DNA of 64,000 nt from Odontesthes bonariensis (taxonomy: Eukaryota > Chordata > Actinopteri > Atheriniformes > Atherinopsidae): NCBI RefSeq assembly GCF_027942865.1, contig NC_134507.1, positions 5,784,026-5,848,025 on the forward strand, read 5' to 3'. The notes under the pieces are model-generated. The model was given only the letters and a program-made list of their open reading frames with translations, made no database searches and was not told where the DNA came from. Shown in pieces: positions 9,201 to 54,608 of the stretch. A program made the translations under genes and the position numbers. The first letter of the stretch is position 1. Each line of letters starts with the position of its first letter.

Positions 9201-12200
9201 AAGAGCAGAAAACATCAGCTGACACGAGATATAAATCAGACACCCACTATATCCTCCTCATCACCGCTGGGCCTTGGCTGCACTGGCATTTGGTTGCCAG
9301 GGAACACAGGCCGAAAAAATAAATAAATCGCCCACAAGTCTGTGAGGAGTTTTTAAAGGGCATTTGGTATTAGGAGAGGGTTTTAGGGTTCGAGATATAA
9401 CCTAATCCTAGAAAGTAATGTCAGCTCTTAAAACCTTCATGCATTTAGTAATGCATCAGTAAAACAAATAACATTGGTCCAGATGTTCTGCAGCTTCAAT
9501 GAAAAGTGAATTTGGAAGTTCTGATTTTACCTTTAAAGCTGGGAGGACTTTAACATCAGACCACAGACCTTCTACAGCGATATGAGCCGGATCAGCCTGA
9601 GCTTCCCACGAGGTTTGCACTGTTTTATTCTTATTCTGACAAAAATGTGAAAGTGAAAACTGGCCCCCTTGTTGTTATGAATCCATAGAGAATGATCACA
9701 ACATTATTGAACAGAGGTCAGCTTTTTGTTTTTGTTTTTTCAGCAAAGTCTAATACTTTACTAGTTTGACTCTGTGTCATAGAGTTCGTCAACATGTAGA
9801 ACCACAAAATAACGGACATACTGTAGTTATCAGCCAGCTGGTGAACCATGCAGAGCCACAGGGGAAGGTATGTCCCTCGGGAGGGTACAAACCATTAACC
9901 GTGAGGGTCTTAAAAGTGAAGTCAGTGCAGATGTAGCATGAACATTGGGATGCAGCGACTGCTAGTCTGGTCGATCAGCTCTGACCAGTGACCGGCATTA
10001 ATCCTGTAATATAACAATTTTTTTTGTTCAGTTCAATCAAATTAATGAAAAATCAAAAATGAATGTATGCTGTCCATTATACTTCTACGAGAGAGAATTA
10101 AAAACGTCAGATCAGACCTTAAAAAAGAAAAAAAAGTCAAATCAGAAAGCGGAATCGACCAAGAAAATTAACATTAAATTGAAACCTGTATTCTTTCCAA
10201 CTGCCAGCAGGTGGTGACCCCTGTGATTACACTTGAAAGAAGTCTGATCGCATGGAGGTCTGGGAGAAAATGACCTCATTCGATTAGCCAAACCCATAAA
10301 CATTTGATTAAAATCCTTAATTCAGCCAAATTCAAAGCTCCACAAACTATTGCTTAAGATCACAATGTGACGCCCATTTAACCAAGACCGAATATTGGAC
10401 ATGGGGCAGCACGATGCATAATTCCAGGTGAAAAATTATGTGAACAACAAATGTTAGCAAGCAAATTCCCCCTTCCGCTTTGTGAGATGATACTATTTCA
10501 CAGGTACAGTCGAAATAAACAGCCTTAATAAACAGCCTGGAATTCTTAAACATATTAAATTACCAAGCCAAAGAAAGATTTATAGAAAATGCAGTTTTAC
10601 TTTTGCCAAATTCTAATAACTCTAAACTGGATATCTGCCAAATTTGTTGCAACTACAATTAGTATTGTTAAAGTGGTGCCAGAAGCAGTGGGTGGTAACG
10701 CAGTATGTTTTCACAAGTACTGAAGTATTACTACTTAACGGTAGGGTGGGAGATCCTGGAGTTTGAGTCCAGCGAAGCTGCATTTTGAAAATACACAGGT
10801 CAAAAGTCCCAACCCTTTTCTTCACTTTCCCCCCGAAGCCACACCTTTAGAGTACATGAACGCGCAATGCTTGTTCACGGGCACGAAGGTGCACGAGCGC
10901 CGTTCTGACAGCAAGCATCGATCGTTGCTGTATTTAGTATTTAGTATATGCTAACTATACGTTTAATAATGCTAGGTGCTAGCTAAGCTGGCTCTAGTTT
11001 AGCTTCCTGCCAAGCTTCTGGGCGCGTAATTCGTTCACGGAGCAGGGTACGCACACAGGGGGGGGGGAGGAGGGGGAGGGAGGAGCAGATCGCAGTTTGA
11101 TAGACGCATCAGAATCCAATCATCGTTAACGGTCCGTTCAGTATGATTGGATAGTGTTTTTCCTAGATTGTACGTTCTAGAGGCCACTAAAACTTTTCAT
11201 ATTTGTGTCAAAACTTTTAATTAATTGGTTGCAATGGGGGTGTGAAGAGTATTTCAAGCAATATGTAAAAAAATGCTCCAGAAAAAGAACCCCTACCCCA
11301 CCTTTAAGAGAGCAAAATTATTTTGCATGTCAAGAGCTAACCTGGGTCCCAATGAGCAGGTAGGGGACGCTGGGCGCATACTCCTGCAACTCAGGCACCC
11401 ATTCCTCACGCACATTCTGGAAACTGGCCGGGTTGACCACCGAGAAGCAGATTAGGAAGACATCGGTCATCGGATAGGACAAAGGCCTCAGGCGGTCGTA
11501 GTCCTCCTGGGAGAAGAGAGAACAAGTTATGTTAACATCCGAGATCAGAAACCAGACATCTGCTTCTTGACATGTCAGAAACTATCGTACATCAATTATT
11601 AAAGCGTGAAAACAGATCAGTTCAGAACGGAGAGGCTTCTGCTCCTCACTGGTGAGCTTAGCTCGCCGTTCCATACGAATGAAGAGGGGTGTTATGGCTG
11701 GAGTTATACGCATTAAAAAGCTGCAGGAGAAGAACTCTGCGTGAGAGTTGTGCTTTGCCCTTTCTAGCGAAGGCGCTTCAGGATTATTTAAGGTTTTCAG
11801 TCCTTTAATACGGGCTGAGCACATGACAGTGCCACGAGACGCCGACAGCCAAACACGCTGTCGCCTCCGATATTTAGGGGTTTGAAATGGGTAACTCACA
11901 GATGCCAGACTGCCCCTTTGTGCATGGGATCAGGCTCTTCCTTGTTCTCACCAAAGATAAACCCTTTTCAACACTGTCTGACTTGCACGCATATTAATAT
12001 TCATGACCCATCTCATTTCTTCTGCTGACGGTACATGGCCTTTAAGCCTCTGGCATGCAGACACATAGAATCAATGGATCTCTAGTAATTACATATGACT
12101 CAACCAGACCAAGTAGATCATCCTCACTTTCTTGCCTTGGAAATGTTCTATTAGCAACCCAAAAATCAAAGCAAATTGGATACAATGACTGACTGTGCTG

Positions 12201-24200: not shown

Positions 24201-27200
24201 GTATTTTTTATTTTTTTTTAGCTGACAGCTGTCGATCACCCAGATAGAGTCTCAACCAACTGCAGGAGCGAGTATCTGGTTACCTTCGTGCTCAAAGTCC
24301 TCTTGTGCTTGTGCACAAAACAAACCAGTGAAGGAACGCCGCTCTGCCACCGGTGGTTGAAAACTTCACACGATGCCTTTAACAGCCTGACTTCCAATAG
24401 ATGTCTTTCTGTGCAACGTCATCACAGGCGTCTGTGCGCAGCTAGAGAGCAGAAAGTAGCACTCATCTTGGTTTGTTTGGCAGAGCCAAGCTCCTAAACA
24501 GAGATGACAACTGAACCAATCCCAAGAAAAAAGAAATATTTCAAAGGGAATAGCTTTTTGCCATGAGTCAAAGCTTGTGGATCCAGGCCAGAAAAAGGGT
24601 ATATTGGTGCACCGCGAGTCCCAAATTGTCGGCAGTGGCCTCTTCGTATCTCAAAATGCAAAAAAAACTCTGATCCTGTTTGACCAGACTTTATGTCCTG
24701 TAACTACACAATGAAGAACTCCAGATTTATTTGTCTGCAGATTTTCCTTTGTAGAAAACTCTGGGCTTCTGTGCAATCACTCACTTTGAAATGTCCAAGC
24801 AGTCACGAATAATGACGGTGATTTGTCTGCCCATTTGAAAACAAATGTATTTATAACACTGGCATGTCCTAAGCTGATAATGTGATCCCTTCCAGCGGTC
24901 CAAGATAGCTGTTAGTGTCTACAGTACGCCTGAAATCGCTGTTACATTCAGCAAGTAAAGGAAAACGTATTGTGAACATTTTTACAGATCGAGCCCATTC
25001 AAACTACCGTTACTACCATGCTTCTGATTTGATCAAAGAAGGAGAGCAGAAACTTCAAACCAACAAAACAGGTGAGATCGTTCAGAAATATTGCCAGTTT
25101 ACATTTTATGCAAATAAAATGCTGTGCAAGAGTATTGACCCACCCCTTGTTTTTCATGTCTTTCTGAGAAAACGATTTATTGAAACATTGACAAACACGA
25201 TTGGAAATAAGGCAAAAACTGGCTTTGAACAATTCTAGCCCGCTTGATAGTCAACACTTGGCATGAGCACCTTTATTCTCCAACACAGCCTGAACCCCCT
25301 TAGGCAAGCTTTCTTGGCATCTATTTAAATAGTCTTCAGGAATAGTTCTCCAGCTTCCAGGCTCTCGTTGCCACTGTTTTTCAGTCCACTTTTTGTGTCA
25401 TTTGGCATACCTCTGCCTTTTCTCCCTATTGTCCTTCCTTAAGAACGGCTTCTGGACAACCACCCTTCCATGGAGACCATTATCTAATGGATCATCTGAA
25501 AGACCAGGTGCATCTTTCAGGTCCTGTGTCAGGTCTTTACTGGATTTTTTCTTATTTCTTAAGGACATCACTCTCAGAGACTGCTCTGCTGTAGATAGTT
25601 TATTAGGTCTGCCACCTCTTATTTTGTTCTCCACGTGTCAGTTGTCCTCATATGGTGAAGGACGCACTGCACACCAAGCTACGATACACCAAGTTTTCAG
25701 CCGATAGATCTTTGGAAATCCATTTGGTGGCACAAAAATACAATTTCACGTCTGTCAAACTGAGTTATCTTTGGCATTTATCAGCCGCAGCACTGCTCCC
25801 TGGATGTGTGAGCATCCTGCAATGTTTTGTCAGCAAGAAACCTATTTATCTCAAAAATTAGAAAATCACTATCAGGGCTGTGTGCTCTCTAAAAGACGAG
25901 TATTAGCACAAGTCTAATAGAGGTCTGTTTTGGCCAGTCAACCTCCTGATGATTTTCTCTATTTCTCATATTTGAAAAGCATGAAGCAGCCAGTGTGTTG
26001 TTGGCACTTTTGCAGACACTTTCTCATTAAGTTTGTATCAACTCACCAACTAACTCCGGCTCTAAATGATCCCGCAGACCAAACTCAATATAAATAATTA
26101 AAAAATTAAAAAATAAAATCTCACTATGATGCCCTCAATGGTCTAGTGTCTGTCTTGTGTTTCCTCCATCTGTGTGTGTACACTGGCTCTTCTGCTGAGA
26201 GGAAACATTACCACGCGTGGAGTGTGCGTGGGTGTATGTGTGAGCGTTTGTGTGCAGGCGAGTGCATTTTGAGAAAAAAAGTTTTAACTCTTGCCCACTG
26301 AATGACACATTGTCACGAAAAAGTCCAGGCATTAAGCAGCAAAATCTGTGACATCACTACTGGACATAGGAGCCCTGTTCTCCACATAATAGAACTATTG
26401 AAGCCCCCTCACTGCCATCACTGTCCATGGTACACCAGACTCTGGCAGTAAACCCATGTGCGAAAACCATCACCTGTTGCAGCTTAGTGTCTGGCCTCAG
26501 TATGAAGCCCGTGGGCGTTTCAGAGGCGCTGCCGGATAGTTACAGGTCCCAGGAGCGCATGTGGAGACCCGAGACGCAGACGAGTGCAAGACACACAGAG
26601 AGTATACGTGACTGTGTGTCCTTGGCGTGTTTGGCATGGAGCCAGAGTAAAAAATAAACTGTACCTGACCAGCTGTGTCATACAGTCCCAACAAGTACTG
26701 CTTCCCTCCGACGTTGACACTCACTGCAAGGAAATGACAAAGAGCAGTTAAGAGGAGGAAACGAACGAGGGGGGGCAGGCAGAGAGTTGTGGTAAGGAGG
26801 GGAGGGGGTCTCAGGGACCCCAACCCCTCTGTGCTATGAAGAAGGCAAACAAGTGGTTTTGATTATAGCAACAGATGCAATGCAGTTTGAGCAAGAGTGT
26901 TGGAGGAGCCGGGGATTTCACATTATCTGACCCCCTTTTTCAGATTTCAGTCTGGGAAATCATCACCAAACACAGAAAAACAGCAGTTCAGCACGTCACC
27001 ATGTCATTATTACATGCTTATTGTAAAGTGGTAAGACTTATAGAGCCATTATACCCCTACCTGCATAATGATCAAAGACTGTGGGCACATACTCCTCGGG
27101 AAAGGCGTCATTGGCATAGCTCATCAGAAGACACGTTTTGCCCACTGCACCGTCTCCAACCACGACGCATTTTAACATGATGGTACCGGTTCCGTTGGCC

Positions 27201-27202
27201 AT
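6119..27202 (-). CDS. rhoq: RhoQ/TC10 small GTPase, complete, five coding exons
   Basis: Join of exons (minus strand) 27202-27061, 26723-26665, 11506-11342, 8812-8717 and 6280-6119, all with GT/AG ends and compatible phases, giving 207 aa plus stop. The protein has the P-loop GDGAVGKT (16-23), switch [10 protein letters not shown] (38-46), switch II DTAGQ (63-67, with the catalytic Gln67), the base-recognition TQID (121-124), ECSAL (162-166), a basic tail [10 protein letters not shown] (about 186-195) and a CCLIT C-terminus. The CLIT box is a prenylation signal and the nearby Cys200/203 are possible lipidation sites. Human RHOQ has 205 aa with the same exon pattern as I know it. RhoQ/TC10 is a Cdc42-related switch acting at plasma membrane and endosomes, linked to insulin-stimulated GLUT4 traffic and actin control. 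The N-terminal MANGTG and the CCLIT end favour RhoQ over RhoJ. ATG at 27202 is chosen because it matches the family N-terminus. Confidence 0.96.
6281..8716 (-). other. rhoq intron 4
   Basis: 2,436 bp, GT at 8716 and AG at 6282-6281 on the minus strand. It contains the hAT-type MITE at 6985-7320 and nothing else I can name. Confidence 0.85.
6985..7320. mobile_element. hAT-type MITE with perfect 8-bp target duplication
   Basis: 336 bp. Ends are CAGGGGTGGAAAGTAAC and GTACTCTTTCCACCTCTG, flanked by GTTAAAAT at 6977-6984 and 7321-7328. The interior is made of repeated words like TTTTACTTTTACTC and AAGTAATT, with no coding capacity. The CAG..CTG ends and 8-bp duplication are hallmarks of the hAT superfamily. 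The intact duplication indicates little decay since insertion into rhoq intron 4. Confidence 0.88.
8717..8812 (-). CDS. rhoq: rhoq coding exon 4
   Basis: 96 bp, residues 123-154, phase 0 on both sides. It begins [19 protein letters not shown], completing the TQID guanine-recognition motif split across the exon 3/4 boundary, and includes the Rho-specific insert helix. Polypyrimidine tract and CAG acceptor are clear; donor is GAG|GTTCG. Confidence 0.95.
8813..11341 (-). other. rhoq intron 3
   Basis: 2,529 bp between good splice sites. It holds the TTAA-flanked MITE at 10739-11303, whose right end is only 34 bp from the exon 3 donor; the rest shows no recognisable feature. Confidence 0.85.
10739..11303. 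mobile_element. TTAA-flanked MITE (GGTGGGGTAGGGG ends)
   Basis: Ends CGGTAGGGTGGGAG and CCCCTACCCCACCT are imperfect inverted repeats directly flanked by TTAA (10735-10738 and 11304-11307), the target duplication used by piggyBac-like and some other transposases. The right 310 bp (10991-11303) recur nearly unchanged at 32085-32393. No transposase. It contains a G-rich tract near 11058-11082. Confidence 0.72.
11342..11506 (-). CDS. rhoq: rhoq coding exon 3
   Basis: 165 bp, residues 68-122, phase 0. It encodes [15 protein letters not shown] (switch II and following loop), [14 protein letters not shown] and the end LLIGTQ. Acceptor CTCCCAG and donor CAG|GTTAGC are canonical. Confidence 0.95.
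12457..13217 (+). mobile_element. hAT-derived element with BED-finger remnant, 8-bp duplication
   Basis: 761 bp. Ends TAGGGATGGGAATCG and AATTCCCATCCCTA are flanked by CTCATCAG at 12449-12456 and 13218-13225. Inside, plus strand near 12593-12694, the frame reads [16 protein letters not shown] then [10 protein letters not shown], which matches the BED zinc-finger pattern (W-x-F ... C ... N-M-x-K) found at the N-terminus of hAT transposases. The second Cys and the final His of the finger are lost and a stop follows. So this is an internally deleted descendant of an autonomous hAT element. Confidence 0.82.
13278..13320 (+). repeat. TIR fragment of the 59-60 kb transposon family
   Basis: The phrase CAACCCCAATTCC followed by AAAAAAGGTTGGGATG matches the terminal repeat of the element at 59079-60282 (reverse complement of its right end). 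Only the end is present here. Confidence 0.6.
14801..15060 (+). mobile_element. L2-like LINE 3' end
   Basis: The sequence corresponds to the 3' tail shared with the copy at 41944-42190 (opposite strand). It has the last codons of the LINE reverse transcriptase, [12 protein letters not shown], then a 3' UTR ending in CACTTTGAATTGTTTG, GTGCTATATAAATAAA and a TTTGATTTGATT tail, typical of fish L2/CR1-type LINE ends. Confidence 0.65.
15120..15557 (+). mobile_element. L2-like LINE 3' end with C-terminal RT codons
   Basis: One frame reads [20 protein letters not shown] then [10 protein letters not shown], the conserved C-terminal part of L2-type reverse transcriptases. It is followed by a tail with AAAGCACATTGAG and CGCTATATAAATAAAG. 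The copy is 5'-truncated, as is normal for LINEs, and abuts a Tc1 fragment. Confidence 0.75.
15640..15905 (+). pseudogene. Tc1-like transposase C-terminal fragment
   Basis: The translation gives [30 protein letters not shown] and [11 protein letters not shown] with stops between. This follows the C-terminal end of fish Tc1 transposases (NP.E..WDEL..R, then K..GYFEESK). The N-terminal DNA-binding part is absent. Non-functional. Confidence 0.78.
20641..20825 (+). repeat. Dispersed repeat ending in ATGGATGGA
   Basis: GGTGACCTGTCCAGGGGTG, a segment around GGAATGGGCTCCAGAGG and a terminal GAAATGGATGGATGGA form a very common fish dispersed repeat. The same unit occurs in inverse orientation at 47216-47320 plus 47722-47880. 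I cannot say whether it is a LINE or SINE tail. Confidence 0.6.
21023..21635. mobile_element. TIR element with GGCTGTGTTCGAAACCGC ends
   Basis: The 18-bp ends GGCTGTGTTCGAAACCGC and GCGGTTTCGAACACAGCC are exact inverted repeats, 613 bp apart. The right subterminal region has several GAGTAGTAG words. No coding sequence. It abuts the next TIR element at 21636 without a spacer. Superfamily uncertain. Confidence 0.7.
21636..22379. mobile_element. TIR element with AATAGCCGCTTTCGGAC ends
   Basis: Ends AATAGCCGCTTTCGGAC and GTCCGAAAGCGGCTATT are exact 17-bp inverted repeats, 744 bp apart. A second inverted stretch near the ends (CAGTTCTAATAACC against TTCTGATAACTG) extends the symmetry. No transposase is recognised. 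Superfamily uncertain. Confidence 0.7.
25240..25640 (-). pseudogene. Tc1-like transposase N-terminal remnant
   Basis: On the minus strand the frame near 25634-25398 reads [23 protein letters not shown] and [19 protein letters not shown]. These match the linker and second helix-turn-helix of Tc1 transposases (GRPRKLS..., ...L...G..GRVARKKPLLS..NR). The remainder is degraded. The inexact flanks suggest an old Tc1 copy covering roughly 25.1-25.9 kb. Confidence 0.75.
26665..26723 (-). CDS. rhoq: rhoq coding exon 2
   Basis: 59 bp; with the last base of exon 1 it encodes [20 protein letters not shown] (residues 48-67). It ends exactly after the catalytic glutamine of switch II. Acceptor TTGCAG and donor CAG|GTACAG are good. 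Confidence 0.95.
27061..27202 (-). CDS. rhoq: rhoq coding exon 1
   Basis: 142 bp, residues 1-47 plus one base. It encodes [16 protein letters not shown], the P-loop and switch I to DHYA, then donor GCAG|GTAGGG. An in-frame open stretch continues upstream to about 27313, but it begins at a GTG and encodes a Gln/Glu-rich run not found in the family, so it is treated as 5' UTR. Confidence 0.95.
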
Positions 27203-27720
27203 GATCCCGACCTTACCACCATCATCATCGGCTCCCCGACGCCCTGTTGTTCCGACCTCCTCCTCCTCCTCCTGCTGCGGCTGCGGCTGCTGCTGCTGGG
27301 TGGGGATCCCCACGCGGCGGGCATCACCAGCCTTGGAGGCGGACTGAGCGGCGCACCGAGACGGACTTGAGCAGCATCTCTCTCCCCCTCCTCCTCCTCC
27401 TCTCCAACACTCCTAGATTTCTTCCTTCTTCTGTTCAATTTTCACCGCAGACAAGATGACTCACTCCAAAGAAGTCTCAACGCAGTTTCCCGTTAAACAA
27501 AAGAAAAAGGGAGGAAAAAAAGAAAAAAAAAGAAGAAAGAAACCGTGTTTTGCTCCGCCGCTGCAACTCCGGCTGCCCGCTCCTCCGTGCCCGCTCCCCG
27601 GTGTGTCCTGCGCCTGAGCTCCCTCTCGCTCCCTGGCGCACTCTGCTCTACTGGTGGACAAGGTGGGTGCGCTTGCTGGAGAGGCGGAGCTTGGACTTTA
27701 AAAACCAAGGGGCTCTGGAT
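27203..27720 (-). promoter_or_regulatory. rhoq: rhoq 5' UTR and GC-rich promoter region
   Basis: GC- and CpG-rich stretch directly upstream of the rhoq ATG, including GGCGGAGC boxes. A TTTAAAG motif at about 27696-27702 (minus strand) could position transcription near 27.67 kb, giving a 5' UTR of around 450 bp. Inference from base composition and position only. Confidence 0.45.
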
Positions 27721-28179
27721 AAAGTAGCCTGCACTCCGCCTGCTGGGGATGCGTAAATTAAGGACCGCGAAAAATTACATCATTAGAAAGACATTGTAAA
27801 AGCAGGAGAATTCTCTGAAACTGGCTGTCCTATTAGAGAGGTACAAGAAGTGGTGCGGAAATAAAGGAAAACAGGGATTTGTGAGATCATAAATTCTCCA
27901 ATACTGCTTGTAATGATACCGGTACAATGTTCAATAGTCTCATGTGGAATATCAATGAGACTCAAGCCTGTCGGCATTACTTTACAAAGTCTTTATATTC
28001 ATCAGTCAACTGTAATGTAAAGATAAATAGATCTGACTTCCTTAATGTGTCTCTATCTCACTGTACAGTGTAGAATCTAATGCAAAAACACACCCCATCT
28101 GCTTGTTTAGGTCCTGAACTGGAGTAACTTATTCACATGACTTTGTGTTTCAGATAAGTGGATGATTCACCCTCATGGA

Positions 28180-28183
<4 letters not shown>
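27721..28183. other. Intergenic, no feature recognised
   Basis: AT-rich sequence between the rhoq promoter and a TG microsatellite. No coding or repeat signature seen. Confidence 0.5.

Positions 28184-28257
<74 letters not shown>
28184..28257. repeat. (GT)n microsatellite
   Basis: 74 bp of uninterrupted GT/TG dinucleotides. Confidence 0.98.
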
Positions 28258-28259
<2 letters not shown>

Positions 28260-28396
28260 GATTGATGGGATATGTGCGATGGGACCACGGAGCTGCAGAT
28301 GGAGACGCCACAGGAGGAGGTGTGTGTTTGTGGAAGGAAGGAGTAGGTGGAACGGAGATTTGACCTCTGCGGTGCAGTCGGCCAGGTGTGGGCTGA

Positions 28397-28896
28397 NNNN
28401 NNNNNNNNNNNNNNNNNNNNNNNNNNNNNNNNNNNNNNNNNNNNNNNNNNNNNNNNNNNNNNNNNNNNNNNNNNNNNNNNNNNNNNNNNNNNNNNNNNNN
28501 NNNNNNNNNNNNNNNNNNNNNNNNNNNNNNNNNNNNNNNNNNNNNNNNNNNNNNNNNNNNNNNNNNNNNNNNNNNNNNNNNNNNNNNNNNNNNNNNNNNN
28601 NNNNNNNNNNNNNNNNNNNNNNNNNNNNNNNNNNNNNNNNNNNNNNNNNNNNNNNNNNNNNNNNNNNNNNNNNNNNNNNNNNNNNNNNNNNNNNNNNNNN
28701 NNNNNNNNNNNNNNNNNNNNNNNNNNNNNNNNNNNNNNNNNNNNNNNNNNNNNNNNNNNNNNNNNNNNNNNNNNNNNNNNNNNNNNNNNNNNNNNNNNNN
28801 NNNNNNNNNNNNNNNNNNNNNNNNNNNNNNNNNNNNNNNNNNNNNNNNNNNNNNNNNNNNNNNNNNNNNNNNNNNNNNNNNNNNNNNNNNNNNNNN
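28397..28896. other. Assembly gap, 500 N
   Basis: Exactly 500 N, a round length usual for a scaffold gap of unknown true size. It cuts the integrase gene after residue 156 and probably hides much of the Maverick/Polinton element. Confidence 0.98.
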
Positions 28897-29364
28897 TTCT
28901 AGTAAAGCCTTAAATTTCTTGTTAAAGAATTCTTTACCAGCATCTGTTTGAAGTTTTTTAGGGGTCTTACTTTCTCTAAAAACAGATTCAAAACCCTTCA
29001 CCACCTCTGCAGCGGATTTTCTCTTGAGAGCACGAACGTACGCCTTTTTTGAAAATATGTCAATGACGGTTAATAGGTAATTATAACCATCGTTATGTTC
29101 CACCAGGGCCTGCATGTCGCAGAGATCTGCCTGGAATTGTTTTAAAGGGCTGGTGACAAAAACTCTGTTTCTCGGAAAACGGATTCTTGCAGGCTTATGT
29201 AGAGTATAGGCGTCTTGCCCTGATAAAAACTCTTGAACTTTTTCGTACATAACTTTCCTACCACTTTCATCCTGCACTGCTTTACGTAAACTCTCTACTC
29301 CCCCAAAACTACCTGGTCGACCAGGATCGTAGTAAACCTTTTTCATTAATCTCATTTCAGTCAT
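28897..29364 (-). CDS. Maverick/Polinton-type integrase, N-terminal 156 aa, cut by gap
   Basis: ATG at 29364; the frame runs open into the assembly gap. Residues 1-60 carry a leader ending in HKPARIRFPRN; the catalytic core follows, with the first Asp at about residue 80 (QADLCDM), a strand LLTVIDIFSKKAYV and the second Asp at 141 (LQTDAGKEF). The third acidic residue (Glu) would fall about 35 residues later, in the gap. The 61-residue D-D spacing and the motifs fit the rve integrase core of Maverick/Polintons, which joins element ends to host DNA. No stop or frameshift is seen in the 468 visible bases. A possible alternative is an integrase of another virus-like transposon. Confidence 0.82.
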
Positions 29365-29433
29365 CTTATCTTATGCAGGTTCAGACTTGTACTGATGAAA
29401 AAACATAAAACGCATGTATATTTCAATCTTATC

Positions 29434-29439
29434 TTTATT
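29434..29439 (-). terminator. Candidate poly(A) signal of the 295-aa gene
   Basis: AATAAA on the minus strand (TTTATT on plus), about 155 bp beyond the stop at 29595 and 70 bp before the integrase ATG. The position suits 3' end formation, but it is only a hexamer. Confidence 0.45.
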
Positions 29440-29594
29440 ATATACACACATACACACGTTTATATATTCATGAACAATGGATAAATGACAGTAATTTAAG
29501 AAGTAGAAAAAGCTAAATGTTATAACAACATCGTACGTGATTACATCATTAGTCTAAATACTTATAAAATGAAAAAATGTTACATCCCTCTTCT

Positions 29595-30482
29595 TCAACC
29601 CTCCCAAAACTTTGTCATGGTTTGAAGTTGTTGCAGTTTCTCAGCATCCTCTCCAATCAGGTGTTCGTACATGTCCTGAATAGCTGTATTGATTTGTTTC
29701 ATTACCGTCAGTTCGTACAAGTAAGCTTCAGCCACAGCCGTGACTCTCGCGTCATCCTCACGAATCCTACGTGCAGTCAAAAGATGCTGAATAGAAGCAA
29801 CGAATCGTTGATTATAAAGTTTCCGCATCAGTCTGTAGTAATGGACATGGAAGAAGTCCTCCTCCATCACATCCATACATTGATGTTGTCGTAAACTAGG
29901 ATGGTCCACGGTGCATCCATAGCAGCATTCTACCATGAATTTTTTGATGGTCTCATTCAAGAGGTGTAACACTGCAGTTTTTACAACTTTGATAAACCCC
30001 GAATGTACCCATCCATCAAATTCATCCTCACCCTCATCCCCCTCTTCTCCTTCATCCACGTCCTCCACTCCTCGGTCATCCCGAGTGCCAGCCGATGTAC
30101 CCTGGCCTGGTGGAATCTGAGAGTCCTCCAAGTTGTCAGACTCAGCTTCCTCCGGTATTACGGCCATGGTGTTGATGCTAGATCCTACCCGGCAGAGCGT
30201 TACGAGGCTGTCATCGGGTGCCGTGGGGGAGAACTCAATCTCGGGTGAAGAGGATGGTAAGTACTCGGGTGATATTGATCGTGAGGGAGGGTGGTACGGC
30301 TCCAGGTCATAGTCTGGTGATCGACACTGCGGCGATACGGATGCCTCAGATGGACTCCCTGGTTGCACCAAGAGCGAGGGAGAAGTATCCACCGAACAGC
30401 AATCAGGGATCTCCCCGCACGTGGTCTTCTGAATATTAGTACTCATCCTGCTCTCGGTGTTGGTTGCTGAGTTCCTGACCAT
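29595..30482 (-). CDS. Unassigned Maverick-associated protein, 295 aa, Cys/His cluster
   Basis: Uninterrupted frame from ATG 30482 to TGA at 29597-29595. Residues 30-90 are rich in Ser and Pro with repeated SP dipeptides; 139-156 is a Glu/Asp/Gly-rich acidic run; from about 160 onward the sequence looks folded and helical. A compact metal-site-like cluster lies at 186-202: Cys186, Cys187, Cys190, His194, His200 and Cys202, reading CCYGCTVDHPSLRQHQC. The C-terminal third (210-290) is probably helical. The TATA-like motif at 30501-30496 would place transcription after the first ATG, so Met13 (30446) may be the real start. The location and metal-site pattern suggest an accessory or regulatory protein of the element; I do not recognise its family and assign no function. 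Confidence 0.72.
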   Translation of the reverse strand: MVRNSATNTESRMSTNIQKTTCGEIPDCCSVDTSPSLLVQPGSPSEASVSPQCRSPDYDLEPYHPPSRSISPEYLPSSSPEIEFSPTAPDDSLVTLCRVGSSINTMAVIPEEAESDNLEDSQIPPGQGTSAGTRDDRGVEDVDEGEEGDEGEDEFDGWVHSGFIKVVKTAVLHLLNETIKKFMVECCYGCTVDHPSLRQHQCMDVMEEDFFHVHYYRLMRKLYNQRFVASIQHLLTARRIREDDARVTAVAEAYLYELTVMKQINTAIQDMYEHLIGEDAEKLQQLQTMTKFWEG

Positions 30483-30495
30483 GCTGCAATGTCTC

Positions 30496-30501
30496 TTTAT
30501 A
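30496..30501 (-). promoter_or_regulatory. TATA-like box upstream of the 295-aa gene
   Basis: TTTATAAAG on the minus strand. Transcription would begin about 30 bp downstream, near 30471, just past the first ATG (30482) and before the in-frame Met13 codon at 30446. Confidence 0.45.
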
Positions 30502-30582
30502 AACCTAAAGGTTAGGGGGTGTGGTTAATGTCTAGGGGGTGGAGGATGAGGAGGAGGAGGTAGTACTTGATTGGCGGTATGT

Positions 30583-31362
30583 CTATACAGCCAGTGTTTT
30601 CTTGACTGCCAGAATTTCAACCCAATTCTGACAGCTGCGGAAGAGCGAGGAAATCCGCTCCGCTATTTCATCCATCTTCTCCATCCATGCTGCGTGAGGT
30701 AGTGCTAGCATCGTTCTAAACACACCACAGTCAGAGTTAAAACACTCAAGAACAAAAAGATCCCCGTCTATCTTATCACTAGATTCCCGGGAGCTTGCAC
30801 GAAAGAACCAGCGACCACTGACTGCTGTTTTCGATTGCCACACCGCACTGAAAGCCATCCTTGTTTGGGCTATCTCGGTGTCATTTAGAGGAGTCATCAC
30901 TCTCGGGCGTTTAACAGGAGGTCCCTGGCTTTCTCCTGATTCTACCTTCACTGGTGCCTCTTCCCGAAATCCTCCAGGACGACGACGAGGGGTTGCTAGC
31001 TTCAACACTCCCCAGTCGTTGGAGGTTAGCATACCCACGCTGGTCAGAGGCCCCAGAGTCTCATCATTTTCGTCGAGCTGATACAGACAGAGCTCGCCTA
31101 TTTCATACCTGAACACATACCCCCATTTTCCACGCATTCCATAGGGCTCCAACGACCATTCTTCCTGTAGAGATTCAGGCGGAGGCTGCTGCGTTCTACA
31201 CAGGAACACCGTACACCTTTTGGGAGCATCTGGCACCAATGGAGGATCTTGATATAAAGTTACCGGAGTCTCACAAATGAGAGAGCGCCGAGTAAATAAC
31301 CTCTCCCCCATCTGCGAAGATTTCTCTTCTTCTTCTTTCACTCTGCTTCTTGTCCTAATCAT
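30583..31362 (-). CDS. Unassigned Maverick-associated protein, 259 aa, probably nuclear
   Basis: Uninterrupted frame from ATG 31362 to TAG at 30585-30583. The N-terminus is basic then acidic (RTRSRVKEEEE). A middle region, about 45-125, looks folded, with WGYVFRYEIGELCLYQLDE. Residues 125-158 are a charged linker with PRRRPGG and a nuclear-localisation-like PVKRPRV (149-155). A second folded region follows (165-255), with AVWQSKTAVSGRWFFRAS and LFVLECFNSDCGVFRTML. VKEE (8-11) and VKVE (138-141) fit the SUMO consensus. No known domain was recognised. Its isolated TATA box and position next to the presumed end of the element suggest an early or regulatory gene; this is inference. Confidence 0.72.
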   Translation of the reverse strand: MIRTRSRVKEEEEKSSQMGERLFTRRSLICETPVTLYQDPPLVPDAPKRCTVFLCRTQQPPPESLQEEWSLEPYGMRGKWGYVFRYEIGELCLYQLDENDETLGPLTSVGMLTSNDWGVLKLATPRRRPGGFREEAPVKVESGESQGPPVKRPRVMTPLNDTEIAQTRMAFSAVWQSKTAVSGRWFFRASSRESSDKIDGDLFVLECFNSDCGVFRTMLALPHAAWMEKMDEIAERISSLFRSCQNWVEILAVKKTLAV

Positions 31363-31418
31363 CCTGAATCAGTTATCTTCACACTGATATTGCGCTCTAC
31401 ATACAGATTCGTTCAGGG

Positions 31419-31425
31419 TTTTATA
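31419..31425 (-). promoter_or_regulatory. TATA box of the 259-aa gene
   Basis: TATAAAA on the minus strand, 57 bp before the ATG at 31362. It predicts a start near 31395 and a 5' leader of about 33 nt. The spacing is good for a real core promoter. Confidence 0.6.
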
Positions 31426-31495
31426 CATTACCAAAACCCCACCCTTCTATCATCTCATTGGTCCTCAAAGTCACGGGCTATACATGACCTTTATC

Positions 31496-31849
31496 CTATT
31501 TTACACCCATACAGGGATCTGCAAAGCCGCCAAACAGCTATTTTTTCGTCATTTCTAGTCCCGAGGATACTTCAAATTGTTGTCAGCTTTGCTCCTAAAA
31601 CTTAAACTTTCCCTATTCCGTCATTAAACACTCTTTCATTTATACACTCAATAAATATTTAGACTTACCTAATTACTTTATACTATTTTCACCCATACAG
31701 GGATCTGCAAAGCCGCCAAACAGCTATTTTTTCGTCATTCCTAGTCACTTAGGATACTTCAAAATGTTGTCAGCTTTGCTCCTAAAACTTAAACTTTCCC
31801 TATTTTGTCATTAAACAATCTTTCATTTTACACTCAATAAATATTTAGA
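31496..31849. repeat. Two tandem copies of a 168-bp unit (187-bp period)
   Basis: Copy 1 at 31496-31663 and copy 2 at 31683-31849 share CAGGGATCTGCAAAGCCGCC, GTTGTCAGCTTTGCTCC and CACTCAATAAATATTTAGA, with about ten differences. They lie upstream of the 259-aa gene's promoter. They could be a regulatory or subterminal repeat of the element, or an unrelated local duplication. Confidence 0.85.
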
Positions 31850-32028
31850 TCCATCCCTTAACCACTCCCCACCTAAACTCCTTCCCATAACTCCTCCCCT
31901 AACACCACTCCCCTAACCCCCTCCTCCCCCTCCCCCCCCCCCCCCCCCCCCTATAGCCCCTCCCCCCACACCTCATGACCAGGGGTCACTAGAGTTCACC
32001 TCGTGACCAGGGGTCAACTAGAGTTCAC
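31850..32028. repeat. C-rich tract and duplicated 28-bp word
   Basis: Strand-biased sequence (many CCCCTCC and CTCCCC words) with a run of 20 C at 31932-31951. It is followed by a 28-bp word, CCTCATGACCAGGGGTCACT..., at 31971-31998, repeated at 31999-32028 with an extra base and few changes. The word contains the near-palindrome TGACCAGGGGTCA. It may be the subterminal part of the Maverick element or a simple flank. Confidence 0.7.
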
Positions 32029-32084
32029 CTGTCACATCCAATTAACTCATTAAGTTTGACGAAAGGGTGTTACTTTAAGTGTGT

Positions 32085-32393
32085 GCTCTAGTTTAGCTTC
32101 CTGCCAAGCTTCTGGGCGCGTAATTCGTTCACGGAGCAGGGTGCGCGCACAGGGGGAAGGAGGGGGAGGGAGGAGCAGATTGCAGTTTGATAGACGCATC
32201 AGAATCCAATCATCGTTAACAGTCCGTTCAGTATGATTGGATACTGTTTTTCCTAGATTGTTCGTTGTAGAGGCCACTAAAACTTTTCATTTTTGTGTCA
32301 AAACTTTTAATTAATTGGTTGCAATGGGGGTGTGAAGAGTATTTCAAGCAATATGTAAAAAAATGCTCCAGAAAAAGAACCCCTACCCCACCT
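32085..32393. mobile_element. Partial copy of the TTAA MITE at 10739-11303
   Basis: Nearly identical to 10991-11303, including CAAGCTTCTGGGCGCG and GAAATACTC-type words (reverse strand), ending CCCCTACCCCACCT then TTAA at 32394-32397. The left half of the element is missing; the break lies just past the C-rich tract and the short spacer 32029-32084. Confidence 0.82.
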
Positions 32394-32397
32394 TTAA

Positions 32398-32640
32398 GTC
32401 CTATATATTGCAAGATTAGATTGAAGTCTGGAGAATATGAAGGCCAAATTAAAATGTCATCAGTGAATATCATTTCCATGAAAGCGTGTATTTGGTCAGC
32501 AACAGTGTTAAGGTCGGGTGTCAAAGTAAGATCTACGTGGCAGGACGCAGAGTTTTCCAGCAGAACATAGGCCAAAGCATCACTCCAGGACAAAATGTTC
32601 ACCGGTTTTCTATTTTTTTCACCTGTCACAGGTCATAATG
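32398..32640 (-). pseudogene. Probable Tc1/mariner transposase C-terminal fragment
   Basis: The minus-strand frame reads YVLLENSASCHVDLT and then IHAFMEMIFTDDILIWPSYSPDFNLI. The WPSYSPDFN stretch resembles the WP.YSPDLNPIE motif just before the last acidic residue of Tc1/mariner transposases, and ENSASCH resembles their DNA.CH block. The match is partial and the NPIE part is degraded. Confidence 0.5.
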
Positions 32641-35620: not shown

Positions 35621-36495
35621 AGTGATGGTTCGGAGTAGATTCAACCTGGGGTCATTTGAACCGTGACATCCAGCCAAGTAGCCCACACCGAAGTTTTTCC
35701 GATCTTGGCTGAACATCAGCTGAGTTCCTGAGTTATCCCGAATAGCTTAGTACAAGCGCTAACGGACCCTGGCAGTATCTCCAAAATTACCACACTAAAA
35801 TCACATGCCATGACACCAAACTTCTACAGTAGTACAAATATGGTCTGTACTCATAAAACGATGCATTTGGAAGTTTGTACATAGTCCAGGAGTTTATTAT
35901 TATCAACACAAGCCTGATAGCTTCTCTGCTGCTAAAGCTGCGTCGACGTCACTTCCTTGATCTGGGAGCTTCAAAGTAAGATGAGGGTTGATCTACTACT
36001 GTAGACAACAAAGCAAGGCTGCTCAATTTCTCCATTGATAAAATAAATTCATAACTCTACAACATAAAAATTCATAAAAAAATCATGTAGAATATAGCAT
36101 ATACTTTGTTGTCTACAGTAGTAGATCAACCCTCATCTTACTTTGAAGCTCCCAGATCAAGGAAGTGACGTCGACGCAGCTTTAGCAGCAGAGAAGCTAT
36201 CAGGCTTGTGTTGATAATAATAAACTCCTGGACTATTTTCAAACTTCCAAATGCATCGCTTTGTGAGTACAGACCATATTTGTACAACTGTAGAAGTTTG
36301 GTGTCATGGCATGTGATTTTAGTGTGGTAATTTTGGAGATACTGCCAGGGTCCGTTAGCGCTTGTACTAAGCTATTCGGGATAACTCAGAAACTCGGCTG
36401 ATGTTCAGCCAATATCGAAAAAACTGCGGGTGGGCTACTTGGCTGGATGTCACGGTTCAAATGACCCTAGGGTGAATCTACTCCGGAGTATCACT
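35621..36495. mobile_element. TTAA-flanked foldback MITE, about 390-bp arms
   Basis: Left arm 35621-36013, spacer 36014-36103, right arm 36104-36495. The arms are inverted copies with about 15-20 differences. Each end reads AGTGAT(A/G)(C/G)T(C/T)CGGAGTAG next to TTAA (35617-35620 and 36496-36499), so the insertion used a TTAA target. The whole unit is nearly one long hairpin and has no coding capacity. A single arm of the same family is at 1171-1560. Confidence 0.88.
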
Positions 36496-48652: not shown

Positions 48653-49390
48653 TCAGCAGAGAGATGATTTCTCCCCAGCAAAGGAGCCATCCAAACCTCC
48701 TCCCAGCCAGTCCTCATTCAGCTCCCCCAGAATCTCCTGCAGGGACAGGACGGGCAGGGAGGCTTTCTGCGCCGGCTCCGGCTGCCCTGACGCCCTGCAG
48801 TCCTCCGTAGCAGCCCCGCTCCACGAATCCTCCATCTGTACGTACTGACCTTCCACTGGTGGGCTACTCTCCAGGCTCATGTCCCAGTATCCAGAATCGG
48901 GTGTATCTGGGGTGGAGGTGTGAGAGGTGGAGGAAGGCATGAACATCTGCTGCTCTGCAGATCCGGGATACATGAAGGCCGTCTGGTTGGGGATGGAGCC
49001 GAAGCCTCCCAGGGGAGAATTGCACCACACAGGGGGTACAGGGGAGCTTTGGCTGCTTGGTTGAGGCCAGTAACCCCTGAGGGGTGGGCTGGCTGAGCTG
49101 CCCACTTGTCTCCCTTGTTGGAGTCCATACATGGAGCTGTACTGTCCACTCTCCTCAGAGGTGGAGTAGGCGGGAGGACACCGCTCATAGTAGCTGACTT
49201 CCTCGTTTTCCTGCTTCACCTGAGCTGGGTAGGCTGGTGGGGGTCCCTGAGGCTGCACCGGGACACCGAGCGGCCCCCTGTTGGCAACAACATGAGGTGG
49301 AGGAAAAACATCATGGCTGTCAGATTGCCACAGGGCTTTCTTGGCTCCCCTGCACTTCAAGGTGCGAGCTCTTCGGTTTTGAAACCAAAC
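48653..49390 (-). CDS. mxtx2: mxtx-like exon 3 (homeodomain helix 3 and C-terminal tail)
   Basis: 738 bp including stop TGA at 48655-48653. It starts [20 protein letters not shown] after a CTTCACCAG acceptor and continues into a Pro/Gln/Ser-rich tail containing a [17 protein letters not shown] segment. This long terminal exon is characteristic of Mix-like genes. Confidence 0.88.
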   Translation of the reverse strand, partial: VWFQNRRARTLKCRGAKKALWQSDSHDVFPPPHVVANRGPLGVPVQPQGPPPAYPAQVKQENEEVSYYERCPPAYSTSEESGQYSSMYGLQQGRQVGSSASPPLRGYWPQPSSQSSPVPPVWCNSPLGGFGSIPNQTAFMYPGSAEQQMFMPSSTSHTSTPDTPDSGYWDMSLESSPPVEGQYVQMEDSWSGAATEDCRASGQPEPAQKASLPVLSLQEILGELNEDWLGGGLDGSFAGEKSSLC

Positions 49391-50723
49391 CTGGTGAAGA
49401 AGTTCAAAGAAAGGAGTTTAGACTGAAGGCAGAGCTGATAACCCACACACTCTGTTAATCATTGTTCATCAGCGGCCAAACAGGCACCGGGGGGGCAGCT
49501 GCAATGGTTGTCAGCTAGCAGAGTTGTACATTCTGTGTTGAGCAAATGTTGTCTTTGAAGATAAAGGAATAAAGTGATAAACAGATAATGGTATCTGCAG
49601 TTGTGTGCAGGATGCATTTGAAAACAAAGTATTTTTCCCAAAGGTGCAATACACGCTACAACACAAATATATTATGTCTTTATGTGTATTTGTTCCTCGT
49701 GCATGTGTCCTATCAAAATCCAACTCCGCAAGTAGACACAAGTCCTGATTTTATCAGAAGCAACCTTACAATTTCACAGATTCTACAGAGTTTGCATTTA
49801 AGTTGTCTCGGGACTTTGGCGAAACGTACCTGGATGCGGGACTCTGGAAGGCCTGTGGTCTGGGACAGGCTCTCCCTGAGGCTGATGCCGGGGTACGGGT
49901 CAGTCTCGAAGGTGGCCCGCAGGAGCTCCACGTGTTCTTTGGAGAAGCTGGTCCTCTTCCTGCGGCTGGCGCTGCGAGAGGACCCGCCGCCGCCGCCGCT
50001 GGAGGCCACGGACCTGGAATCATCTGAGGGCAGAGGAGAGAGCGGGCTCTACGTCAGACAGGATCCTTAACCCTACTGCTCAGTGCAACTCATGACTTTT
50101 GGAGCTGTTTGGTGTGTGCACACACAGCTGGAACCAAACAGGAGATGCCACTTATCCAATTTGCAGTTGAAGAATGTGCTTTTTCTCTTTGTGTGGTTTT
50201 GACACTGTACTATCTCAGCAAGTAAACAGTAAAATGAAGATAGCACTGTTATGCAGCTGATTATCTGTACGGACAAAGTGCTCATTATTGCACATTATTG
50301 CAGAGGTGCAGTGATATGCAAATAGCAATTTTTGGGTAATTTACTTCTCTGAACTAAATTACACACTACAATTAAATCTCTGATTAAACTGAACCTGGTG
50401 CCAAAATGTGTACATTTTCTGCAGGTTTTACTTTTCTGGGTAATTTTTTTTTCTGTCACTGGTGCAGTCATACCCTCTGCACACAAACAGAGTATTTGCA
50501 ACCATTTCATCTCTACTGCCACTATTTGCCACTATCCAAATTGAATCCAAATACAAAAACCTATGTCTACATACAGCAGCAGAAGGATTTCATTTGATTT
50601 AAAAAAAAAAAAGAAAGAAAAAAAAAAGTTTGGTTTCCATTAACACAACAAGCAAAATCCCTTGTTTTCCTATATCTAACAGATCATAAAACAAATCTTA
50701 CCATTGCTGGAGTCCTTCCACAT
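48653..50723 (-). CDS. mxtx2: Mix-type (mxtx-like) paired-class homeobox protein, three exons
   Basis: Join of 50723-50702, 50023-49830 and 49390-48653 gives 317 aa. The homeodomain covers about residues 27-86: Arg5, Phe8, Leu16, Phe20, Trp48, Phe49, Gln50, Asn51 and Arg53 are in their expected positions, with VWFQNRRAR in helix 3. The intron between homeodomain positions 46 and 47 is typical of paired-like genes. [20 protein letters not shown] and LPESRIQ fit the Mix/mxtx group rather than Otx or Pitx. The C-terminal 230 residues are Pro/Ser/Gln-rich with an acidic, hydrophobic end ([12 protein letters not shown], about 289-300) that may activate transcription. Zebrafish mxtx genes act in the yolk syncytial layer and early mesendoderm. 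Which paralogue (mxtx1, mxtx2 or mixl1) this is cannot be decided without a tree; the symbol is provisional. Confidence 0.85.
49391..49829 (-). other. mxtx-like intron 2
   Basis: 439 bp with GTACG donor and CCAG acceptor. No feature inside recognised. Confidence 0.85.
49830..50023 (-). CDS. mxtx2: mxtx-like exon 2 (homeodomain positions 1-46)
   Basis: 194 bp. It encodes DDSRSVASS, a short Gly run, [14 protein letters not shown] and on to GLPESRIQ. Acceptor GCCCTCAG and donor CAG|GTACG are canonical. The antisense strand is also open because of high GC, but that frame has no meaning. Confidence 0.9.
50024..50701 (-). other. mxtx-like intron 1
   Basis: 678 bp, AT-rich with an A-rich run at 50600-50628. 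No feature recognised. Confidence 0.75.
50702..50723 (-). CDS. mxtx2: mxtx-like exon 1 coding part
   Basis: 22 coding bases, MWKDSSN plus one base, then donor ATG|GTAAG. Context GCTGCCATGTGG is a fair Kozak site. The start is supported by phase, by the TATA box about 110 bp upstream and by the absence of another in-frame ATG before the homeodomain. Confidence 0.72.
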
Positions 50724-53163: not shown

Positions 53164-54608
53164 TTTACAGTTTTTCTCAGTCGCTTTGGTACAATTCTCG
53201 AATCATCCTCGCCATTTGCAAAACAGTACGCCATTTCTCAAAACTGTTTGGACAAATAGCAAAACACCATGGATGACCTGCAAAAGCCACTCTCTTGCTC
53301 AAAATCCTTAGTTCATCTCTCAAAACTAAATATCTGTGTCAATGAACATGTCAGTGCCATCAGAATGTCAAGTCCTTGTGTCATTGTGTACGGATAAGAC
53401 AGTCAAATTGCTTAGTCATGTTGTCAACATAACAGTGTACTCTGGAGGGATGTTCTGATGTAAACTATGGCTAAGTTTTGATGACAATTATTGTAATTTA
53501 CACCTTAGTGTATGTGTGAGATTGATTACAAGAGACAAGATTCACAATTAACCTTTTACTGTTTGTAATTTGTACAAAAAAGAAAAGACAGCACTGTATA
53601 GCACAAAGAAAAAGTAGAAATGTGAACCTACAATCTAGTAAGGGAAAACTGTACATACAGTGCTGTAGGAATTACAGTGCAGACAGTCTTCCTAGACCTG
53701 TTGACGTTCCTGTCTGTTGGGCCACATATTCTCATCCACGTCACATTGAATATTATCTCTTGCGATGCAGCGTGGAAAGAATCTTCTTGAGTGTCTTATC
53801 CAGCCTCTGCAGGCCTCTGCTGTGATGTCCTCATACGCCGCATCCATGGCAGCCAGAAGGGTAATTTGTGTATGTGGCTGGCGATCATACACTTTCCAAC
53901 GCCACGCAGAGAAAAACTCTTCAATGGGGTTAAGGAATGGGGAGTAGGGTGGGAGGAACTCCATCAGCATCCTATTGTGAGCTGCAAACCATTGCCTGAC
54001 GATGTTTGAGCGATGGAAGCTGACATTGTCACAAATTACCACATGCTTTGGCAAGTCATCTCCAATCTGACCTCTCATGTTCAGGGATGAGATCCCCGTA
54101 AAGAGCGTCTAAAAAGGTGACTAGACGCTCTGTGTTATATGGACCAATAAGGGGAATATGCGTTAGCACACCATTTTCTGAGATGGCAGCACCCATTGTT
54201 ATGTTCCCGCCCCGTTGGCCTGGCACATCAACTGTCGCTCTGTGCCCGATGATATTTCAGACAGATTTTGAACAAAAGTCTAATGGAAATGTATTGAAAT
54301 ATGCTTGACATATTATGACAACTTGTTCAACCATTTTGCAAGTAAAGACCTATACGATGAACTAATGCCTTAATGTTGTGGGGGGTGAGACTATTCAACA
54401 GAGACCTGTACAATACATTTTGATCAACATGACAAAAGCAATTGATAATGTAGGATGTGCCAAATCATTGGCAACTTGCTGAAAGAAATGAGAAACTGCT
54501 TGTTTGATGTGCACAAGTGACACAATGATGTGACAATTGAACACGTAGTTTTGAGAATTACAACTCTGATCTGAGAATTGTCCAAAAGCGACTGAGAAAA
54601 ACTGTAAA
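53164..54608. mobile_element. IS630/Tc1/mariner-group transposon
   Basis: Ends TTTACAGTTTTTCTCAGTCG and CGACTGAGAAAAACTGTAAA are inverted repeats; symmetry extends inward through TTTGG(T)ACAATTCTC. The element contains a DDE-type transposase gene on the minus strand (53692-54245) and interrupts an L2 copy. Target duplication is not obvious. The family is common in fish genomes. Confidence 0.82.
53692..54245 (-). pseudogene. DDE (DDE_3-type) transposase, frameshifted
   Basis: The 3' part, 54078-53692, is an open frame with VVICDNVSFHRS (second catalytic Asp), LMEFLPPYSPFLNPIEEFF (with the Glu after NPIE), WRWKVYDRQPH and the end DVDENMWPNRQE. The 5' part, about 54245-54080, is in another frame and reads VPGQRGGNITMGAAI, then LIGPYNTERLVTFLDALYG. 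A frameshift near 54075 separates them. The N-terminal DNA-binding region upstream is not readable. Confidence 0.8.

What the first reader, a model, noticed from the sequence alone, without database searches (positions are those of the whole stretch)
28897..32028. Maverick/Polinton (adintovirus-like) fragment with uninterrupted reading frames next to an assembly gap
All three visible frames (integrase start, 295 aa, 259 aa) are free of stops and frameshifts, unlike every other transposon in the window, and two have TATA-like sequences at sensible distances. This suggests a young or selectively kept copy. The gap of exactly 500 N sits where the rest of a large element would be.
Basis: partly seen in the sequence, partly recalled or inferred. 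Interest (0 to 1): 0.75.

Follow-up and report, generated by a model that had tools for sequence, protein, structure and literature searches.

The report
End of a young fish Maverick
The sequence is the integrase-side end of a recently inserted virus-like Maverick element in what appears to be a fish genome, cut off by an assembly gap; near-identical sister copies carry the remaining genes, and some relatives are palindromes that look like integrated replication by-products.

Summary
Window 28897-32084 is the integrase-side end of a Maverick/Polinton: 156 codons of an rve integrase running into a 500-N gap, two accessory frames, and a 646-bp terminal inverted repeat (TIR) ending at 32084. It interrupts a 543-bp dispersed repeat whose other half is absent left of the gap. 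The rest comes from the same genome. Four other loci share the integrase stretch at 100%. Sister copies lie between paired TIRs with 6-bp target-site duplications; several hold PolB, and the one interior read has a packaging ATPase and an adenain-like protease in the published order. The closest sister differs by at most 1 substitution and a 9-nt gap in 3,188 bp, so the family is young. Integrase and ORF295 show purifying selection against a sister group about 83% identical (dN/dS about 0.2). ORF295 probably starts at codon 13. What the gap holds cannot be read here.

By-product: four copies carry one end of the element twice, in inverted orientation; one is a 13.0-kb palindrome with a target-site duplication. 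Integrated fold-back products of protein-primed replication explain them best.

The parts
28397..28896 (.). Assembly gap, 500 N; by inference hides the rest of the element, its second TIR and the left half of the host repeat
28897..29364 (-). First 156 codons of a Maverick integrase (rve match from residue 74); 364 aa with C-terminal chromodomain in a sister copy
29461..29466 (-). TATATA(AA) box about 100 nt upstream of the integrase ATG
29595..30482 (-). Accessory ORF295; probable true start M13 at about 30446 (283 aa); C-terminal half most conserved, with KFMVECCYGC.VDHPSLRQHQC invariant in the 8 copies compared; no significant Pfam/PHROGs/PDB match
30496..30501 (-). TATA box of ORF295, kept in the 5 group-B copies printed
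30583..31362 (-). Accessory ORF259; no Pfam/PHROGs/PDB match
31420..31425 (-). TATA box of ORF259
31439..32084 (.). Terminal inverted repeat (646 bp), integrase-side end; recurs in inverted pairs at other loci
31500..31849 (.). Two tandem copies of a roughly 186-bp unit inside the TIR
32079..32084 (+). Terminal (GT)3 motif = (AC)3 at the element's 5' end
32085..32090 (+). GCTCTA: host bases expected as the 6-bp target-site duplication; present once in an uninterrupted copy of the host repeat
32085..32398 (+). Right part (positions 230-543) of a 543-bp dispersed host repeat interrupted by the element

Best explanation
Window 28897-32084 is the integrase-side end of one copy of a young, multi-copy Maverick/Polinton family (adintovirus-like), probably in a fish. 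Shown: right TIR, two accessory frames and the integrase start, with near-identical sister copies whose other genes and ends make a standard vertebrate Maverick about 16.7 kb long. Inferred: the element replicates as linear DNA by protein-primed synthesis with its own PolB, and its chromodomain integrase inserts the ends into host DNA, duplicating 6 bp. Inferred: the assembler broke at this copy because a long stretch is nearly identical to several others, and the 500 N stands in for the missing part of the element plus the left half of the target repeat.
For: rve match E 9.7e-10. In the host genome 5 places including the window are 100% identical over all 156 residues; 27 places including the window align over at least 154 residues at 83-100%, 18 of them with an uninterrupted 364-aa frame. 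TIR found as inverted pairs 16.7 kb apart on C6 and on C26. PolB frames of 1397 aa inside both, on the strand opposite to the integrase. ATPase (Pox_A32, 5.8e-7) and adenain-like protease (3.2e-4) in the C6 interior. Chromodomain in a sister integrase (2.4e-7). 6-bp target-site duplications in 5 of 5 long group-A copies read, C6 if one more GT is counted to the end. Window versus C6 sister: at most 1 substitution and one 9-nt gap in 3,188 bp. Host repeat interrupted at 32085. dN/dS about 0.2 for integrase and ORF295 between groups. Gene order equals the published order.
Against: No PolB match and no second TIR is visible in the window, and the C6 interior has no blastn match there. One sister with the same integrase end (C19) is about 11.2 kb and has no PolB match, so this copy may be shortened too. 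9 of the 27 good integrase places lack an uninterrupted 364-aa frame (one of them the window, cut by the gap). Capsid proteins were assigned by position and size only; the 435-aa frame has no Pfam match and only chance-level PDB matches. The protease score is just under Pfam's cut-off. No reference Maverick or adintovirus protein was compared here, and no viral contigs relative was found. A scaffold misjoin at the gap is not excluded.
Confidence: 0.93

Rival explanations
1. The window holds a shortened or rearranged derivative (internal deletion, or inverted duplication of the integrase-side end) rather than a full-length copy; the gap is then a few kb only.
For: Such derivatives exist: C19 about 11.2 kb without PolB match, C24 2.8 kb and C25 2.2 kb, C23 13.0-kb palindrome. 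A palindrome is also hard to assemble (inference).
Against: Three of the four other copies with an identical integrase stretch (C6, C26, C2:34.8 Mb) have PolB. Nothing in the window itself points to a derivative.
Confidence: 0.25
2. Scaffold misjoin: the contig starting at 28897 carries a real Maverick end but belongs elsewhere, not beside the RHOQ-like exon.
For: The left half of the interrupted host repeat is not found left of the gap, and the gap length looks like a placeholder (inference). Contig ends inside near-identical repeats are prone to misjoining (inference).
Against: The left flank has a single match in the genome, itself, so no second copy or haplotig offers another neighbour. 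No other evidence either way.
Confidence: 0.12
3. The integrase belongs to an LTR retrotransposon (chromovirus) and the neighbouring frames are unrelated.
For: rve plus chromodomain occurs in chromoviruses (recalled); the genome holds many other rve places (150 scored of 2,233 candidates), some of which are weak matches of this piece in long frames.
Against: The closed 364-aa frame in sister copies is a stand-alone integrase. Paired TIRs, 6-bp target-site duplications, PolB and ATPase between the same TIRs.
Confidence: 0.01
4. A domesticated host gene or genes derived from a Maverick, kept by host selection.
For: Open frames with purifying selection between groups.
Against: Near-identical multi-copy family with target-site duplications on several chromosomes; selection is explained by element replication.
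Confidence: 0.03

Closest known systems
Vertebrate Mavericks/Polintons (Nino Barreat & Katzourakis 2021, PMC8097293; abstract, Results part 1, Discussion part 1 and passages seen)
   Same: Two convergent modules, int-mcp-PW-MCP-pro and PolB-ATP-PM-PZ; accessory genes flanking the modules; TIR 46-1,447 bp; 6-bp target-site duplication; about 17 kb; repeated end motif.
   Different: Group A end motif is AC-type, (AC)3 followed by T; the paper reports an AC-type motif, (AC)3A, as new in Monopterus albus and speaks of 14 defective copies with it. ORF295 and ORF259 were not matched to anything named. No palindromic derivatives are described in the parts read.
Adintoviruses (Starrett et al. 2021, recalled; definition read in PMC11071296 section 16)
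   Same: rve integrase with C-terminal chromodomain and PolB in one element; adenain-like protease (weak match).
   Different: OTU-like domain of PolB and reciprocal BLASTp recognition of Hexon not tested.
Symmetric end-duplicated defective genomes of protein-primed linear DNA viruses such as adenovirus (recalled)
   Same: Both ends derive from one end; hairpin-like centre with a short asymmetric spacer.
   Different: Here they are found integrated in genomic DNA, three of four with 6-bp target-site duplications.

Membership tests
Maverick/Polinton | rve-type integrase, stand-alone | tested here: met
   Window piece E 9.7e-10; sister L010 364 aa, rve 1.6e-11
Maverick/Polinton | Protein-primed type B DNA polymerase in the element | tested here: met
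   Met in sister copies (DNA_pol_B_2 in C6, C26, C2:34.8 Mb, C27); in the window copy it would lie in the gap and is not visible
Maverick/Polinton | Packaging ATPase | tested here: met
   Sister C6 interior only, Pox_A32 5.8e-7, 29.7 bits over cut-off 22.8
Maverick/Polinton | Adenain-like cysteine protease | tested here: inconclusive
   Sister C6: Peptidase_C5 E 3.2e-4, 20.9 bits against cut-off 21.3, right position
Maverick/Polinton | Major and minor jelly-roll capsid proteins | tested here: inconclusive
   435-aa and 256-aa frames in the right order in sister C6; no Pfam match; 435-aa frame only chance-level PDB matches
Maverick/Polinton | Terminal inverted repeats | tested here: met
   Paired in sisters; only one end visible in the window
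Maverick/Polinton | 6-bp target-site duplication | tested here: met
   7 of 8 copies read by eye (C25 without; C6 and C24 if one more GT is counted to the end); window: one side only, plus an uninterrupted repeat copy
Maverick/Polinton | Two convergent gene modules, integrase outermost in its module | tested here: met
   Sister C6; published order
Adintovirus | Integrase with C-terminal chromodomain | tested here: met
   Sister L010: Chromo 2.4e-7, residues 324-362; this part lies in the gap for the window copy
Adintovirus | PolB with OTU-like N-terminal domain and BLASTp-recognisable Hexon | not tested
   No adintovirus reference proteins at hand

The most novel reading that the evidence does not exclude
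In this genome, Maverick copies exist whose two ends both come from one end of the element: C24 integrase side twice, C25 PolB side twice, C27 integrase-side end also on the PolB side, and C23 a 13.0-kb palindrome of the integrase-side half with an asymmetric centre of about 68 nt. Three of these four sit between exact 6-bp target-site duplications. They would be integrated fold-back products of a protein-primed linear replication intermediate, that is, a genomic record that vertebrate Mavericks replicate as free linear DNA before integrase inserts them.
Probability: 0.6. Interest if true: 0.6.

Novelty: new member of a known kind. Interest (0 to 1): 0.45.

Why it matters
The fragment identifies a Maverick family that moved recently in a vertebrate: copies at distant loci are almost identical, and there are two sister groups with different end motifs. 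Intact vertebrate Mavericks are a small minority of those described (134 of 3,511 loci in PMC8097293). The inverted end-duplicated copies could make an inferred step, protein-primed replication outside the chromosome, testable from genome sequence alone. It also shows how such elements can break assemblies: the gap is probably caused by the element.

Tried and rejected
Searching viral contigs with the three window proteins gave no relative. Phage records gave two weak hits, E 0.3 and 0.5, one annotated as transposase, one without annotation. PHROGs gave transposase and unknown-function families for the integrase and nothing significant for the two accessory frames. PDB sequence searches of the accessory frames gave two weak matches for ORF295 (E 0.8 and 2) and none for ORF259. 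Single-sequence AlphaFold models were too poor to search (mean pLDDT 44 and 39), so no fold search was made. Looking for ACTACT, CTCTCT or TGTGTGT end motifs near 32 kb gave no clear end; the end came from sister copies. The minisatellite-like stretch at 31969-32030, first suspected to be the end, lies inside the TIR. An LTR-retrotransposon reading was rejected (paired TIRs, PolB). A missed-adapter sequencing artefact for the palindromes was considered and thought unlikely, because the flanks beyond the duplicated 6 bp differ on the two sides. A second copy of the left flank in the assembly was sought and not found.
Full report
WHAT IS THERE. The window is part of a 945-Mb genome of 187 contigs, at C2:5784026-5848025. 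The single gap, 500 N, lies at 28397-28896. Right of it, on the minus strand, are 156 codons of an integrase (Pfam rve, 9.7e-10), a 295-aa frame and a 259-aa frame. The two closed frames are the longest of the window, and 0 of 500 dinucleotide shuffles of each reached their length; for the integrase piece 1 of 500 did. CpG observed/expected is 0.65, within the range of the other 3.2-kb stretches (0.32-0.69), near its top.

SISTER COPIES. A search of the same genome with the 156-aa piece gave 106 places; 150 of 759 candidates were scored, so this is a lower bound. Five, including the window, are 100% identical. 27 places, including the window, align over at least 154 of 156 residues at 83-100%. 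Of these 27, 18 have an uninterrupted 364-aa frame; two carry one stop; the window's frame runs into the gap; six have shorter frames. At DNA level the window stretch 28897-30864 is identical over 1,968 bp to copies on C2 (34.8 Mb) and C6, and differs by 2 bases from those on C19 and C26. Over the whole 3,188 bp the C6 copy differs by at most one substitution and one 9-nt gap; C26 by two to four substitutions and a 1-nt gap; C2:34.8 Mb by 11 mismatches and 17 gap positions, all in the outer 1.2 kb; C19 by at least 5 mismatches and 14 gap positions; C27 is further off. A second group, here called B (L019-L028), is 82-83% identical in DNA over the longest aligned piece in nine of ten (81.5% in L026) and 87-90% in the integrase piece.

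THE ENDS. DNA 31370-32120 was searched in the genome (40 of 356 candidates scored, 48 matches). Positions 31439-32084 recur as inverted pairs: C6 2515918/2532666 and C26 18998808/19015537 (both 16.7 kb), C19 (about 11.2 kb from 20506683, where the last 32 bp of one TIR stand apart, to 20517859), C2 34780003/34802145 (22.1 kb), C27 (15.4 kb), and two mini-elements on C24 (2.8 kb) and C25 (2.2 kb). This is a TIR of 646 bp. The 10 sister ends printed all reach AAGTGTGT, which ends at 32084 in the window. Reading the flanks by eye, the 6-bp target-site duplications are TACATA (C26), TTTATG (C19), CAGTAC (C2:34.8 Mb), CATGTA (C27) and AAGGAC (C6, if one more GT is counted to the end). C24 has GACCAC, again with one more GT; C25 has none that I could read.

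THE TARGET SITE. The window's right flank from 32085 is positions 230-543 of a 543-bp dispersed repeat. In the genome, 40 other strong matches (89-98%; 40 of 2,711 candidates scored) begin at query 97-110 and end at 647-652. The window has another complete copy at 10735-11308 at 90% identity, but no match to positions 1-229 beside the gap. In the uninterrupted copy L047 the expected GCTCTA stands at this point. So the element interrupted this repeat, and its left half must be in the gap if the scaffold is right. The left flank 27450-28396 is unique in the genome (1 match, itself), so no second haplotype could be read.

WHAT SISTERS CARRY. A PolB search (PF03175; all 44 candidates scored, 64 matches) puts 1397-aa open frames inside the C6 and C26 copies, on the strand opposite to the integrase; C2:34.8 Mb and C27 have matches too, C19 has none and none lies in the window. 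The C6 interior between integrase and PolB has frames of 256, 142, 435 and 180 aa in integrase direction, then 266, 113 and 226 aa in PolB direction. A 146-aa frame there is, by its coordinates, the PolB C-terminus (inference); two further frames of 113 and 82 aa overlap these genes. The 180-aa frame resembles adenovirus endoprotease (3.2e-4, just under cut-off) and the 226-aa frame the packaging ATPase Pox_A32 (5.8e-7); the others scanned from this interior had no Pfam match. One whole sister integrase of 364 aa (L010, C6) has rve and a C-terminal chromodomain. This is the order published for vertebrate Mavericks: int, mcp, PW, MCP, pro against PolB, ATP, PM, PZ, with accessory regions flanking the modules (PMC8097293, Results part 1 read).

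THE ACCESSORY FRAMES. ORF295 has 54 places and ORF259 69 places in the genome, with full-length open copies in both groups. Against group B, dN/dS (Nei-Gojobori, pairwise) is 0.17-0.21 for the integrase piece, 0.20-0.23 for ORF295, and 0.63-0.74 for the 91-108 C-terminal codons of ORF259 that could be compared. Within group A the counts are small: ORF259 gives 0.07-0.39 in copies with five or more differences, but integrase and ORF295 range from about 0.2 to above 1, so no selection can be claimed for recent copies. The pairwise values share ancestry and are not independent. The 5 group-B copies printed and L014 lack an ATG at the first codon of ORF295, but keep M13 and the TATA box GGTTTATAAA, so 283 aa is the likelier product. 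KFMVECCYGC.VDHPSLRQHQC (dot: variable) is invariant in the eight copies compared and may bind zinc (inference). ORF259 has an NLS-like PPVKRPR stretch (read). Neither has a significant Pfam, PHROGs or PDB match. Single-sequence structure models are poor. A role as early, host-directed regulators, as in other DNA viruses, is a guess.

HOW IT MOST LIKELY WORKS. Linear DNA with terminal repeats is copied by the protein-primed PolB. Short repeated end motifs permit the jump-back start (PMC8097293 Discussion part 1). Varying numbers of GT at the ends, (GT)3 and (GT)4 in different copies, fit that, but they are few. The integrase joins the ends to host DNA with a 6-bp stagger. Shown: genes, ends, target-site duplications, copy identity. 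Inferred: replication mode, integration by this integrase, current activity. With at most one substitution in 3.2 kb to the closest sister, and a neutral rate of about 5e-9 per site and year (assumed, recalled), insertion lies within some 10^4-10^5 years.

WHY THE GAP. The contig begins inside an element nearly identical to several others, and 500 N looks like a scaffolder's placeholder (recalled practice; only one gap here, so not tested). This is an inference.

PALINDROMIC RELATIVES. C24: a 2,809-bp element with two inverted copies of the integrase-side end, arms 1,342 bp at 99.6%. C25: 2,234 bp, arms 920 bp at 99.5%, matching the PolB-side end of C26 at about 94%. C27: ORF259 and ORF295 at both ends, PolB inside. 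C23:24471126-24484148 (group B): TIRs of 610 bp with one gap and no mismatch, AG-type end, target-site duplication ATAGTG; integrase, ORF295 and ORF259 at both ends; no PolB match. Its fetched 2.5-kb centre is a palindrome whose arms differ at 2 positions in about 1.2 kb, around an asymmetric centre of about 68 nt; the stretches between ends and centre were compared only through protein matches. Three of these four have a 6-bp target-site duplication and different flanks, so they were probably inserted in this form; C25 is the exception. How frequent such copies are was not surveyed. Searches for such Maverick derivatives in print (listings only, no paper opened for this) showed none that I recognised; this is no proof of absence.

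VERDICT. A real, correctly recognised Maverick end; ordinary in kind, uncommon in youth; the by-product about palindromes is the more interesting part.

Noticed in passing
G000 C24:14907246-14910056 (L079), C25:27394250-27396483 (L080), C27:30601873-30617232, C23:24471126-24484148 (L081-L083): Maverick copies with one end of the element duplicated in inverted orientation, from mini-elements to a 13.0-kb palindrome; three of four with 6-bp target-site duplications.
   Followed up: partly
Group A ends (window 32079-32084) against the ends of one group B copy (L081, L082): Two sister groups in one genome use different end motifs, AC-type and AG-type; group A copies differ in the number of GT at the end.
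   Followed up: partly
window 31500-31849: About 186-bp tandem duplication inside the TIR, present in sister TIRs too.
   Followed up: partly
window 10735-11308 and 32085-32398: 543-bp dispersed repeat with sharp boundaries, at least 40 strong copies in the genome; unnamed.
   Followed up: partly
window 35688-36429: 326-bp inverted repeat, 97% complementary with 90 nt between the arms; a possible fold-back element.
   Followed up: no
window 48653-50048, minus strand: Homeodomain gene, apparently in two exons (Pfam Homeodomain 1.5e-10 in 49713-50048), perhaps Mix/Sebox-like (recalled).
   Followed up: no
window 27038-27313, minus strand: RHOQ/TC10-like first exon about 1.1 kb left of the gap; the Maverick would sit upstream of this gene.
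   Followed up: partly
window 53692-54108, minus strand: Fragment of a DDE transposase (DDE_3, 3.5e-13).
   Followed up: no
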